This document shows, piece by piece, positions 140 through 6,516 of a stretch of DNA of 64,000 nt (positions within the stretch are counted from its first letter, which is position 1; each line of letters starts with the position of its first letter). A program made the translations under genes and the position numbers. The notes under the pieces are model-generated. The model was not told the origin of the DNA, did no database searches, and worked only from the letters and a program-made list of their open reading frames with translations. The DNA comes from Trichobilharzia regenti (lineage: Eukaryota > Platyhelminthes > Trematoda > Strigeidida > Schistosomatidae). The DNA lies in the NCBI GenBank assembly GCA_944472135.2, contig OX235265.1, forward strand, positions 46,411,459 through 46,475,458, given 5' to 3'.

Positions 140-940
140 CAGATATCATAGCAACTAGTGTTGTAGAAGTACGCCGTTGAAAATCAGCTTTATTCACATT
201 CAATCCAACATTGCCTGATGGAGTTGTTTTCCCTGTCGCTGAAGTTGACGATGATGTTGATGGTGATGGGATCATGTATCTCAGTTCAGGGACATGATAA
301 ATAGCACTCAAATTGATTCGAAATTTAATAGAACTTGGATTAAAATCAGCTTTGCATAAATTATGCTCACAAACACGACAACGCATTGATCGTTTAACAA
401 CTAAACTTTTTGGTCGTGGTTCCAATTGTGATATATGCTTTGGTTGAATTTGTGGTGCTAAATGACGCTGATGAATATTGGTTATTTTATCGATATTCAA
501 TGGTCGGTTAATGTATTCATCTAGATCAAACGGTGGAATATCGGAGATAGCTTCAGAAGATGGAATTAACACCTTTTTAGCTGGACCACTTTCTCGTTGA
601 GGTGTTGTCCACGAAGATGAACAGTAACGTCGTAAGCGCGGATTTAAAACAGAATAACGTTCCAGTAAAATCATATAATTTCTCTTCCGGGCAAATTTAT
701 TCCACTCTTGATCCTCTTTCTCTTGAACGGCCAAATGACGATAACTATCGATTAATTCAGAAATCCGCTTAAAATGTGGACTTGTTTTCTCTTGCCATCC
801 ACCAGCAGCCTGTTGTTGATCTGGAATACCACTATCTCTAGTAATCCAACGACAAAAACCACAGGCTAAAAAATAGGCCTTCTGTGCTGTAGTTCTACCC
901 GGTTCATCGGGTTTAGCTTGGACCACTGCAGTAGCACGTG
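96..940 (-). CDS. DCTN4: Dynactin subunit 4 (p62), 3' part of interrupted coding exon
   Basis: Dynactin p62 sits in the pointed-end complex of dynactin, the cofactor that links cytoplasmic dynein to cargo. The translated frame contains the conserved KAYFLACGFCRW block, the KKRNY-like basic stretch and the second zinc-binding block (RCRVCEHNLCKADFNPSSIKFRINLSAIYHVPELRYM), all characteristic of DCTN4. The N-terminal zinc region lies about 5.6 kb away at 6763-6513 because an LTR retrotransposon has inserted between them. Codons run in phase across the deleted element: CTR from the upstream part, then ATAVVQAKP here. The frame formally runs to a stop at 96, but bases below about 140 are SINE, so the exon probably ends or is broken near 140-200; I could not place a splice donor. 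The C-terminal third of the protein is missing from this side. Confidence 0.88.
937..940. repeat. Target site duplication CGTG, left copy
   Basis: CGTG occurs directly before the 5' LTR and again directly after the 3' LTR (6513-6516). Four to six bp duplications are typical of Ty3/gypsy integration. Collapsing the two copies restores the DCTN4 frame. Confidence 0.85.
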
Positions 941-1421
941 TGTGGAGTACGTAACAATGTGATTGTACACTTTTTGGTTACTTGTATAAATTCGAGATAT
1001 TGTACATAATTTTTGTTTAAAACGCTTCTTGTTGAAATATACATAACTTCCGTGTACAATTGAAAAATACACTCTGCTGTTGGAGACTTCGTCTTCTCCC
1101 TGGTCACTTCTGCTTACTTGCTCCACTCACACCGTGTTGTATACTTCGGATTTATTGTAGGAGCCTACTACTCTCAACCGAAGACATTTCTACAACCGGA
1201 ACACAGCAGCTACAGCAGACGCAGTCCAAACAATTAACGTGCCCGTGGATTATATAATTAATTTGTAGCCGAGGACTTAGACTTTATATCCAAGTAATCC
1301 TTTTTGTTGCTATAACTCGTCACTGTATTTTTGGTAATATATTGTGATTTAACACTCCACTGACTTGGATTATTACTTTTATATTTGGAATGTTAGTGAA
1401 CTCTAATATTAGTCCCCTACA
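941..1421 (+). repeat. 5' LTR of CsRn1-type retrotransposon
   Basis: This 481-bp LTR begins with TG and ends with CA. Reading base by base against the 3' LTR (6032-6512), I see one difference, the fourth base (G here, T there). A TATA-like TATAAA lies at about 985. The near identity implies a very recent insertion. Confidence 0.93.
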
Positions 1422-1428
1422 AATTAAT

Positions 1429-1446
1429 TGGTGAGCCCGATAAGAA
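1429..1446 (+). promoter_or_regulatory. Primer binding site, probably tRNA-Trp
   Basis: TGGTGAGCCCGA starts seven bases after the LTR end. It matches the 12-base complement of metazoan tRNA-Trp 3' ends (TGGTGACCCCGA) except at one position. CsRn1-clade elements are known to use tRNA-Trp, which fits the Gag motif. The exact schistosome tRNA end was not available to compare. Confidence 0.6.
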
Positions 1447-1561
1447 CACGGATTATTTTGGCATATTCATATTCTTATTTTTGCTATTTTGTATATTCAT
1501 TGTGATTTTGTGTGTGGTTTATATTTGTATCCTAATTTGCACCAATAACCTCATATTTATA

Positions 1562-4204: not shown

Positions 4205-5556
4205 CCGATTCTCTTTCAAGAAGTGACATTAACCAGCTCCAAACGTCGGTAGACATCAGTCTTGATCGTATGGCTCAATTACAAAGAGATGACGTTGAAC
4301 TCCAAACCTGCCGCAGAAACTCTTCCTTACAGCTCAAAGATGTGCCTATCCCCTTATCAGATGCAACCATAGTCTGCGATGTATCTACCGGCACTAATCG
4401 TCCATTTGTCCCTCTCAGTTGCCGAAAAGCATTGTTCGAACATTTACATTCGCTTTCTCACCCTGGAGTACGCGCCACGGTCAGACTGATCAGCGAACGC
4501 TTCGTGTGGCCTAAAATGAACTCTGACATTCGGAGATGGGCACGAGAATGTATCCAATGCCAATGCTCCAAAGTACACCGCCACACTATTACAACCCCGA
4601 AGACGTTTGAATTACCCGAAAGGAGATTTCAGCATATCCATATAGATATCGTGGGACCATTGCCAACATCAAGGGGATATACACATATCCTGACAGCGAT
4701 TGATAGATTTACTCGTTGGGCTATTGCATGCCCCTTAAACGACATATCTGCTGAAAACGTTGCTTTAGTTTTTCTCGACCGTTGGGTGTCAAACTACGGT
4801 GTACCAACTACTATTACATCCGACCGCGGTCCTCAATTCCAATCGACACTCTTTCGCGAACTGACGAGACTTCTGGGAGTGAAACATATCTCCACAACAG
4901 CCTATCATCCGGCAGCGAATGGTCTAGTGGAAAGATTCCACAGACAACTGAAAAGCTCCCTGATGGCGCAGAATGATACATCTAAGTGGAGTGAATACTT
5001 ACCTTTGATTTTACTTGGTATCCGTTCTACTATCAAAGAAGATTTAGGATGTACACCGGCTCAACTTGTCTATGGCACCAACCTAACCTTGCCTGGACAG
5101 CTAGTCCCCTCAGCCGATTCCACAGACGTGAACATTGCCGACTTCACTAACCGATTAACTAGACAAATGCTTCAACTTCAACCAACAGCACCTCGACAAT
5201 CTCCCCGAAGAGATCAGATCAACAAACATCTACAAACTTGCAAATTCGTCTTCATTCGAGTCGACGCCATCAGAAAAGGATTGCAACCTCCATACGAAGG
5301 ACCCTTTCAAGTTATTAAACGTTCAGACAAACACTTTACAGTGAACAAGAATGGAAGACGAGAGACTGTTTCAATTGATCGAATCAAACCCGCATACACC
5401 GACAACGACTTCGAATCTACATCGGCAGCTGCGCAATCAAATAATCAAACATCCGATTCCCCTCCACCGGCACCAAGTCTTATCCTCCCTCCATATCACA
5501 CACGTAGTGGTCGGCAAATCAGTAAACCGGCTCGCTACGTTCATTTTGAGGACTAA
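4171..5556 (+). CDS. Pol, end of RNase H plus integrase
   Basis: It begins with QYIKGDANVVADSLSR, the RNase H end. Numbering from the methionine at 4198, integrase has an H84-x3-H88-x29-C118-x2-C121 zinc domain. The catalytic triad is D150, D209 and E245, with 35 residues between the last two, as in the D,D-35-E family. A GPY/F-type segment (PPYEGPFQVIKR) follows, and the end is basic/polar (HTRSGRQISKPARY) without a chromodomain. The integrase is complete, although joined to RT only through a one-base frameshift. Confidence 0.9.
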   Translation, partial: HQYIKGDANVVADSLSRSDINQLQTSVDISLDRMAQLQRDDVELQTCRRNSSLQLKDVPIPLSDATIVCDVSTGTNRPFVPLSCRKALFEHLHSLSHPGVRATVRLISERFVWPKMNSDIRRWARECIQCQCSKVHRHTITTPKTFELPERRFQHIHIDIVGPLPTSRGYTHILTAIDRFTRWAIACPLNDISAENVALVFLDRWVSNYGVPTTITSDRGPQFQSTLFRELTRLLGVKHISTTAYHPAANGLVERFHRQLKSSLMAQNDTSKWSEYLPLILLGIRSTIKEDLGCTPAQLVYGTNLTLPGQLVPSADSTDVNIADFTNRLTRQMLQLQPTAPRQSPRRDQINKHLQTCKFVFIRVDAIRKGLQPPYEGPFQVIKRSDKHFTVNKNGRRETVSIDRIKPAYTDNDFESTSAAAQSNNQTSDSPPPAPSLILPPYHTRSGRQISKPARYVHFED

Positions 5557-6031
5557 CAAAAGAAAAATAATTAAAAATTATTATTATCTTTTTCGTTTAG
5601 ACATTATCATCATGACCGTTAGTATTTCGTCGTAAACTTTGATGTTACTATCACTATTATTTATTTATATGTACCTCACCTAAAAAACAGGTATTGTCCT
5701 TTCCAAAAACTATTGATCTTTAATCCATATTTTTTTTAATGTTTCTTTCCCCTCCTTAATTACTGTGTATTTACATATTTTTCTTTATACATTAAAAATC
5801 TATGTTCATGGTTAGTGCAAATTTAAGTGACATGACTTTCTATTTCAATTTTTATTGCTGAACTCATTGTATATGCTTTCAGACTTTACATGATTCACAT
5901 ACCTTCTCGCGTTTATGCATGTTGTAATATATCCCTATTTTTATCCAAAAGTTGCTATTACTATTATTATTTACTTCATAGTTTTACTTATCATTTTCCG
6001 GTTGTCTCTCCGGACCTCTAGGGGGGAGCCG
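5557..6031 (+). other. Untranslated 3' internal part of the LTR element and polypurine tract
   Basis: This AT-rich stretch has no long frame in the element's sense and no envelope-like gene. It ends in AGGGGGGAGCCG (about 6020-6031), directly before the 3' LTR, which fits a polypurine tract that primes plus-strand DNA. Confidence 0.7.
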
Positions 6032-6512
6032 TGTTGAGTACGTAACAATGTGATTGTACACTTTTTGGTTACTTGTATAAATTCGAGATATTGTACATAA
6101 TTTTTGTTTAAAACGCTTCTTGTTGAAATATACATAACTTCCGTGTACAATTGAAAAATACACTCTGCTGTTGGAGACTTCGTCTTCTCCCTGGTCACTT
6201 CTGCTTACTTGCTCCACTCACACCGTGTTGTATACTTCGGATTTATTGTAGGAGCCTACTACTCTCAACCGAAGACATTTCTACAACCGGAACACAGCAG
6301 CTACAGCAGACGCAGTCCAAACAATTAACGTGCCCGTGGATTATATAATTAATTTGTAGCCGAGGACTTAGACTTTATATCCAAGTAATCCTTTTTGTTG
6401 CTATAACTCGTCACTGTATTTTTGGTAATATATTGTGATTTAACACTCCACTGACTTGGATTATTACTTTTATATTTGGAATGTTAGTGAACTCTAATAT
6501 TAGTCCCCTACA
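6032..6512 (+). repeat. 3' LTR of CsRn1-type retrotransposon
   Basis: 481 bp, TG...CA, same length as the 5' LTR with one visible base difference at position 4. It is followed by the second CGTG copy. Confidence 0.93.
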
Positions 6513-6516
6513 CGTG
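6513..6516. repeat. Target site duplication CGTG, right copy
   Basis: Matches 937-940. On the minus strand this is where the DCTN4 frame enters the retrotransposon. Confidence 0.85.

What the first reader, a model, noticed from the sequence alone, without database searches (positions are those of the whole stretch)
937..6516. A very recent LTR retrotransposon splits the DCTN4 coding exon
The element is bounded by LTRs that appear to differ at one base of 481, and by a perfect CGTG duplication. Excising it and one CGTG makes the dynactin p62 frame continue without a lost or gained base (CTR | ATAVVQAKP) inside a conserved region. A knock-out of a single-copy dynein cofactor would be expected to be harmful. 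The insertion may therefore be heterozygous, strain-specific, present only in the assembled haplotype, or tolerated because another copy exists.
Basis: partly seen in the sequence, partly recalled or inferred. Interest (0 to 1): 0.88.

Follow-up and report, generated by a model that had tools for sequence, protein, structure and literature searches.

The report
Jumping gene inside a DCTN4 retrocopy
In a bird blood fluke, a recently inserted LTR retrotransposon sits inside a scrambled, intron-less copy of the dynein-cofactor gene DCTN4 rather than in the working gene, which is intact elsewhere; the oddity worth noting is that the copy looks as if reverse transcriptase made one full lap around its RNA.

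Summary
The insertion is real. An LTR element (941-6512) has 481-bp LTRs with one mismatch and a CGTG target duplication, and it splits a DCTN4-like frame that closes exactly at the empty site. The knock-out reading fails. The target is an intron-less DCTN4 retrocopy lacking all 7 introns of the stretch it covers. The ten-exon parent (about 51 kb, open to its stop codon) lies on another contig of the same assembly, which I take for Trichobilharzia regenti.
The retrocopy is permuted: mRNA 1218-1382 lies upstream of mRNA 1-1227. Its two ends overlap by 10 nt. The new joint (1382 to 1) has 6 nt of microhomology and is not at splice sites, so it is not a canonical back-splice.
It lies inside an older Gypsy element with ACAG target duplications. 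That element lost about 2.4 kb and gained a repeat+SINE piece plus the DCTN4 cDNA, joined by a 7-nt microhomology and 5-nt fillers.
Best reading: a reverse-transcribed patch at a chromosome break, made in one lap, and hit later by a young CsRn1-like Gypsy family. The knock-out claim falls; the one-lap retrocopy is a modest novelty.

The parts
937..940 (.). left target-site duplication CGTG of LTR element 1
941..1421 (+). 5' LTR of element 1 (481 bp, TG...CA)
   Evidence: 9 other fetched genome loci hold an exact copy
1550..2380 (+). gag frame (DUF7041); the CHCC motif lies at its end in another frame
2406..3047 (+). aspartic protease frame (matches below the Pfam cut-off)
2912..4204 (+). RT and RNase H frame, a different frame from the protease
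4129..5556 (+). integrase frame (H2C2, rve), again a different frame from RT
6032..6512 (+). 3' LTR of element 1
6513..6516 (.). right target-site duplication CGTG of element 1
6513..6941 (-). DCTN4 retrocopy, part A first half: 5'UTR exon + exon 2 + start of exon 3 joined without introns (ATG at 6763)
127..940 (-). DCTN4 retrocopy, part A second half: rest of exon 3 to exon 7, ending at mRNA position 1227
6936..7100 (-). DCTN4 retrocopy, part B: mRNA 1218-1382 (end of exon 7, first part of exon 8), out of order upstream of the ATG
6936..6941 (-). 6-nt microhomology AAAAGT at the joint between mRNA 1382 and mRNA 1
127..133 (+). 7-nt microhomology TGTACCA between the SINE and DCTN4
1..133 (+). 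tRNA-type SINE cut off before its 3' tail; with about 150 nt further left it forms a composite genome repeat
7101..7105 (.). 5-nt filler CCGTC between DCTN4 part B and Gypsy element 2
7106..8987 (+). 3' part of older Gypsy element 2 (RNase H end, integrase, 3' LTR 8652-8987); first 211 bp of its 5' LTR lie left of the window at L009:9622-9832
8988..8991 (.). target-site duplication ACAG of Gypsy element 2 (mate at L009:9618-9621)

Best explanation
What it is: a recently inserted, CsRn1-like Ty3/Gypsy LTR retrotransposon lying inside an intron-less, incomplete and permuted retrocopy of DCTN4. The real DCTN4 gene is intact on another contig, so no knock-out is implied. How the retrocopy arose (inferred, about 50%): an older Gypsy element broke between its 5' LTR and RNase H region. 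The left end was extended with a copy of a genomic repeat+SINE. The 3' end TGTACCA of that SINE then annealed inside a spliced DCTN4 mRNA and was extended by a reverse transcriptase towards the 5' end of the RNA. At AAAAGT the enzyme jumped to the same short sequence downstream of its own starting point, either on the same RNA or because that RNA was a non-spliced circle. It copied back until it met its starting point, overlapping it by 10 nt, and the end was joined with a 5-nt filler to the other side of the break. Later the young LTR element inserted at CGTG. Shown: all junctions, intron loss, order, parent gene, target duplications. Inferred: the break, the single lap, which enzyme.
For: Parent gene: eight exons at C6:8687623-8724020 in order, all 7 introns between them GT-AG, 450 codons without a stop and identical to T. 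regenti DCTN4 P0023 in 450 of 450 codons; two further exons with AG and GT borders carry the frame to a stop codon just past C6:8738848. Retrocopy crosses all 7 introns, including the 5'UTR intron. Part A = mRNA 1-1227, part B = 1218-1382. Joint at AAAAGT, 6 nt; SINE joint 7 nt; random-junction chance about 0.0013 and 0.0004. The 5-nt stretch CCGTC at the right joint is absent from 19 of 19 other fetched copies of Gypsy element 2. Element 2 has ACAG on both outer sides. Genome matches to the first 84 residues: 3, all window or parent. With whole P0023, 7 of 80 scored matches begin before residue 444, and all 7 are the window copy or the parent; the other 73 fall in the last 97 residues of that gene model (capped list of 16,274 candidates). 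Young LTR family: 10 of 12 fetched LTR loci identical over 481 bp, two pairs 5092 bp apart.
Against: One lap is not the only way to get overlapping ends: two cDNA pieces could have been joined, with the 10-nt match a roughly 1-in-100 coincidence (my estimate, 21 positions in an mRNA of about 2.1 kb). No read data, so an assembly error at the joints cannot be ruled out. The parent's transcription start is not known. Coding differences from the parent are 8 nonsynonymous to 11 synonymous, fewer nonsynonymous than neutral (P 0.03 with transitions only, 0.0005 with C>T/G>A only). One of the 8 is clearly on the parent's side (codon 280, where the copy has the residue of 9 of 9 other trematodes) and one perhaps (codon 247, 4 of 9, T. 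szidati among them), so past constraint on the copy is neither shown nor excluded.
Confidence: 0.85

Rival explanations
1. The LTR element inactivates the one functional DCTN4 gene, tolerated by heterozygosity or strain differences.
For: Frame closes exactly at the empty site and stays open over about 349 codons.
Against: An intron-containing parent open to its stop codon is present in the same assembly; the window copy lacks the C-terminal third and is permuted.
Confidence: 0.02
2. Canonical circRNA-derived pseudogene: a back-spliced DCTN4 circle was reverse transcribed.
For: Reversed exon order, no poly(A), ends that meet within 10 nt; such pseudogenes are reported in mouse (passages of PMC5345220; PMC5408686).
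Against: The joint lies inside exon 8 (the parent goes on CATCTGC, not GT) and in the 5'UTR exon after TT, not AG; it has a 6-nt direct repeat.
Confidence: 0.08
3. LTR-mediated retroposition: reverse transcription in Gypsy element 2 particles switched to DCTN4 mRNA, and the chimera was integrated by integrase.
For: DCTN4 lies between the 5' and 3' parts of element 2, whose outer ends carry matching ACAG duplications; microsimilarity at joints.
Against: DCTN4 is antisense to element 2, whereas copying both RNAs in one minus strand should give the same sense (my inference); the 5' LTR is cut at base 211 of 336; a genomic repeat+SINE intervenes.
Confidence: 0.15
4. DNA-level origin of the permutation: a linear, 3'-truncated retrocopy became a circular DNA and was re-inserted as the patch.
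For: A circle opened at one point explains ends that meet; microhomology joints suit end joining.
Against: Needs an extra retrocopy, circularisation and re-insertion; an opened circle does not by itself give a 10-nt overlap.
Confidence: 0.2

Closest known systems
Class 2 templated sequence insertions (RNA-derived patches at double-strand breaks; PMC5110952, passages read)
   Same: No poly(A), no target duplication flanking the patch itself, microhomology and short added bases at the joints, loss of sequence at the target
   Different: Patch is permuted with a 6-nt microhomology joint, about 1.39 kb of spliced mRNA, chained to a genomic repeat+SINE; the target loss is about 2.4 kb
CircRNA-derived pseudogenes (mouse; PMC5345220 and PMC5408686, passages read)
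   Same: Exons in reversed order, no poly(A), LTR sequence in the flanks
   Different: Joint is not at splice sites and carries a short repeat
LTR-mediated retroposition (Tan et al. 2016, seen only as cited in passages of PMC5408686)
   Same: Retrocopy between parts of an LTR element, microsimilarity at joints
   Different: Opposite sense to the element, incomplete 5' LTR, extra genomic patch
CsRn1-like Ty3/Gypsy retrotransposons of trematodes (PMC2582038, passages read)
   Same: CHCC Gag motif CX2HX9CX3C readable, near-identical LTRs, RT-RH-integrase order
   Different: In this copy protease, RT-RH and integrase lie in different frames, so it looks disabled as assembled; a gag/pol frame change alone would not say so, since some members of the clade use one

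Membership tests
Processed retrocopy of DCTN4 | Parent introns absent | tested here: met
   7 of 7 introns absent over the copied part
Processed retrocopy of DCTN4 | Poly(A) tail and target-site duplication of the copy | tested here: not met
   Ends are SINE (microhomology) and Gypsy 2 (filler); no tail; the 10-nt repeat is DCTN4's own sequence
Canonical circRNA-derived pseudogene | Reversed-order joint at a splice donor and acceptor | tested here: not met
   Joint inside exon 8 and at TT|AAAAGT in the 5'UTR exon
Canonical circRNA-derived pseudogene | Exons in reversed order | tested here: met
   mRNA 1218-1382 precedes 1-1227
LTR-mediated retroposition | Retrocopy between LTR-element parts with outer target duplications | tested here: met
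   ACAG at L009:9618-9621 and window 8988-8991
LTR-mediated retroposition | Same sense as the element and two complete LTRs (my inference from the mechanism as described) | tested here: not met
   DCTN4 antisense to Gypsy 2; 5' LTR 211 of 336 bp
Class 2 templated sequence insertion | Microhomology or added bases, no poly(A), no target duplication at the joints | tested here: met
   7-nt and 6-nt microhomology, 5-nt fillers
Class 2 templated sequence insertion | Occurred at a double-strand break | not testable with these tools
   no empty-site allele or reads
LTR retrotransposon (element 1) | Paired LTRs, TG...CA ends, short target duplication, RT/RH/integrase | tested here: met
CsRn1 clade (element 1) | CHCC Gag motif | tested here: met
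   CWYHWKFGRHALKCVKPC, read in another frame than the gag ORF
CsRn1 clade (element 1) | tRNA-Trp primer binding site | not tested
   sequence after the 5' LTR read, no tRNA compared
CsRn1 clade (element 1) | Placement in an RT tree | not tested
   no tree made

The most novel reading that the evidence does not exclude
A retrocopy produced by a single lap of reverse transcriptase over one mRNA: primed inside the RNA by a broken chromosome end, it ran to the 5' end, jumped by a 6-nt repeat to a point downstream of its own primer, and stopped on meeting it. If general, this is a splice-independent way to make circRNA-like permuted pseudogenes, and some pseudogenes read as circRNA-derived could be of this kind.
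Probability: 0.45. Interest if true: 0.5.

Novelty: new variant of a known kind. Interest (0 to 1): 0.33.

Why it matters
It removes a false gene loss: an annotator could read this locus as a broken dynein-cofactor gene. It also gives a clean, datable stack of events (Gypsy 2, RNA-derived patch, young Gypsy 1), and a permuted retrocopy whose reversed joint is demonstrably not at splice sites, which warns against taking reversed exon order alone as proof of a circular RNA ancestor.

Tried and rejected
Canonical circRNA origin was my first hypothesis, from the reversed order and the meeting ends, before the parent gene was found. It was rejected as canonical once the joint proved to lie inside exon 8. 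A tandem array of DCTN4 units was rejected: no further stretch of DCTN4 words to the right up to 64 kb, only three isolated 6-residue matches, and none in the 20 kb to the left (where the only hit was the SINE part of the query). The idea that the window is the only DCTN4 was rejected. A search for short relatives around the exon-8 joint scored nothing, 0 of 21 candidates. A Pfam scan of the small part B gave only a complement domain at E 0.024, below its cut-off, taken as chance. Further DCTN4 pieces elsewhere are not excluded: one search scored 80 of 16,274 candidates and its list is crowded by a repeat in the tail of P0023.

Ten paper searches were made; I claim nothing about absence from print.
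Full report
Observation. The LTR element is as described: LTRs 941-1421 and 6032-6512, 481 bp each, one mismatch, CGTG on both sides, and an empty site that keeps the dynactin p62 frame. Pfam recognises Dynactin_p62 on both sides of it. The element carries a DUF7041 gag, weak protease matches (below the curated cut-off), RT, RNase H and integrase. It also has the CHCC Gag signature that PMC2582038 (passages read) gives for the CsRn1 clade. As assembled it looks disabled: gag, the CHCC motif, protease, RT-RH and integrase change frame from one to the next. 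A gag/pol frame change alone would not prove this, because some members of the clade use one. Its family is young: 40 LTR places were scored of 1995 candidates, all 99-100% alike. Of 12 fetched, 10 hold an exact copy of the window's 5' LTR, its own place included, and two other LTR pairs, identical to it, lie 5092 bp apart (the window's spacing is 5091). The one difference between the window's LTRs is at base 4, where both letters occur in the family: G in those 10 loci, T in 5 of 11 repeat loci fetched for another purpose. The insertion may therefore be even younger than one mutation suggests.

Which organism and which gene. Among the relatives are trematode DCTN4 proteins, several of them schistosomatid. 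The gene in the same assembly (954 Mb, 548 contigs) is identical to Trichobilharzia regenti DCTN4 (P0023) in 450 of 450 codons of its first eight exons, so I take the species to be T. regenti. The window is G000:C4:46411459-46475458. The parent is on C6: a 5'UTR exon (8687623-8687728, as far as the copy shows), then exons at 8690174-8690374, 8691807-8692100, 8695857-8695958, 8702625-8702689, 8707330-8707442, 8718317-8718684 and 8723742-8724020. All seven introns between them are GT-AG and the frame is open throughout. Two further exons (from about 8731235 and 8738369) have AG and GT borders where expected. They carry the frame to a stop codon after ...DFGHMPVKN, just past 8738848; the stop seen by tblastn after DDPK lies behind the splice donor. 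The gene is thus about 51 kb long and looks intact.

What is split. The window copy runs through all seven introns without a break, so it was copied from spliced RNA. It covers mRNA positions 1-1227 (window 6941 to 127, interrupted by the element) and 1218-1382 (window 7100 to 6936), the second piece lying upstream of the start codon. The last third of the protein is missing. Against the parent it has 21 differences in the first piece and 1 in the second, plus a 12-bp insertion. Of 19 coding differences, 8 change the protein. Two of these (G78R and P179S) hit residues that are the same in P0023 and in 9 of 9 other trematode proteins compared. At codon 280 the copy has the residue of 9 of 9 others and P0023 differs; at codon 247 it has that of 4 of 9.

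Copy number. The first 84 residues match the window and two parent exons only, 3 of 3. With the whole P0023, 80 of 16,274 candidates were scored. Seven matches begin before residue 444, three in the window and four on C6; the other 73 lie between residues 449 and 545, mostly from 485 on, where the P0023 model runs into a repeat. Further small pieces of DCTN4 elsewhere are not excluded.

The permutation. The 1382-to-1 joint lies on the shared hexamer AAAAGT. On one side the parent continues CATCTGC inside exon 8; on the other the 5'UTR exon is preceded by GATT. It is not a pair of splice sites, so this is not a canonical back-splice. The two outer ends overlap by the 10 nt TGTACCACAG. The left end is joined to a SINE cut off before its tail, sharing TGTACCA. 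In 7 of 11 fetched loci the SINE and about 150 nt to its left form one contiguous repeat that matches up to that TGTACCA; in the other 4 only the left part matches. The right end is followed by CCGTC and then by Gypsy element 2; none of 19 other fetched copies of element 2 has CCGTC there. Microhomologies of at least 6 and 7 nt have chances of about 0.0013 and 0.0004 at random joints.

The frame around it. The first 211 bp of the 5' LTR of element 2 begin 379 bp left of the window's first base, preceded by ACAG. The 3' LTR ends at window 8987 and is followed by ACAG. The two LTR parts differ at 3 of 211 bases. Judged by a copy of element 2 in intron 6 of the parent gene, about 2.4 kb of element 2 between them is missing (my subtraction), replaced by 5 nt, the repeat+SINE and the DCTN4 piece. 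This fits repair of a break with chained patches, as described for class 2 templated insertions (PMC5110952, passages read). It fits LTR-mediated retroposition (described in PMC5408686, passages read) less well, because DCTN4 is antisense to the element and the 5' LTR is cut.

Mechanism. The simplest chain is left-to-right synthesis on the + strand: SINE end annealed at TGTACCA inside DCTN4 mRNA, reverse transcription towards the RNA's 5' end, a jump at AAAAGT to a point about 155 nt downstream of the primer, copying back to the primer site, a 10-nt overlap, end joining. If the jump was on the same RNA, a stop near the primer is expected, because the template beyond it was already copied; if A and B were independent pieces, the meeting of ends is a coincidence of about 1 in 100 (my estimate). 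A non-spliced circular RNA or a circular DNA intermediate would look alike. I put the one-lap reading (same RNA or non-spliced circle) at about 0.45-0.5. The enzyme is unknown; Penelope-like, LINE-like and Gypsy reverse-transcriptase remnants occur in the window (the first two named by my own reading of the ORFs).

Order of events: element 2 inserted; it was broken and patched with the repeat+SINE and DCTN4 cDNA; element 1 inserted in the patch. LTR divergences (3 of 211, 1 of 481) agree with that order, but their intervals overlap.

Results that do not fit neatly. The coding differences between copy and parent are poorer in protein changes than neutral drift predicts (8 to 11). Changes on the parent's side may explain this, but I could not separate the branches at the DNA level, so a period of constraint on the copy remains possible.

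Limits. One assembly, no reads, no second individual; the genome search was reachable only at times.

Noticed in passing
G000:C6 intron 6 of parental DCTN4 (about 8709537-8714082): A copy of Gypsy element 2 with both LTRs and ATTG target duplications sits antisense in intron 6 of the working DCTN4 gene.
   Followed up: partly
P0023 residues about 485-545; G000:C6:8749441-8749629 and many other places: The end of the public T. regenti DCTN4 model (P0023) looks like a dispersed repeat (73 of 80 scored genome matches fall in residues 449-545), whereas the C6 gene has a proper last exon like that of T. szidati; the model probably has a wrong C-terminus.
   Followed up: partly
45885-45932 +, 17111-17158 -, 38527-38571 +, 50678-50723 +, 37155-37200 +: Five type I hammerhead ribozymes above the Rfam cut-off.
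   Followed up: no
11227-12192: Two ORFs that I read as a Penelope-like element remnant (RT end and GIY-YIG-like part); not scanned against a library.
   Followed up: no
38847-39388: A TAG array of about 180 copies, 98% matches, open in several frames.
   Followed up: no
G000:C8:14.77-16.52 Mb: The 11 best matches, after itself, of the repeat left of the retrocopy all lie here (40 scored of 873 candidates), suggesting a large repeat block.
   Followed up: partly
12290-12485 and 14040-14260: Near-palindromic stretches, seen in the sequence and as matches in both orientations.
   Followed up: no
1-133, 26995-27150, 56667-56813: Three copies of a tRNA-type SINE at 88% identity or more, the first cut at the DCTN4 joint; weaker partial matches at 61164 and 34884.
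   Followed up: partly
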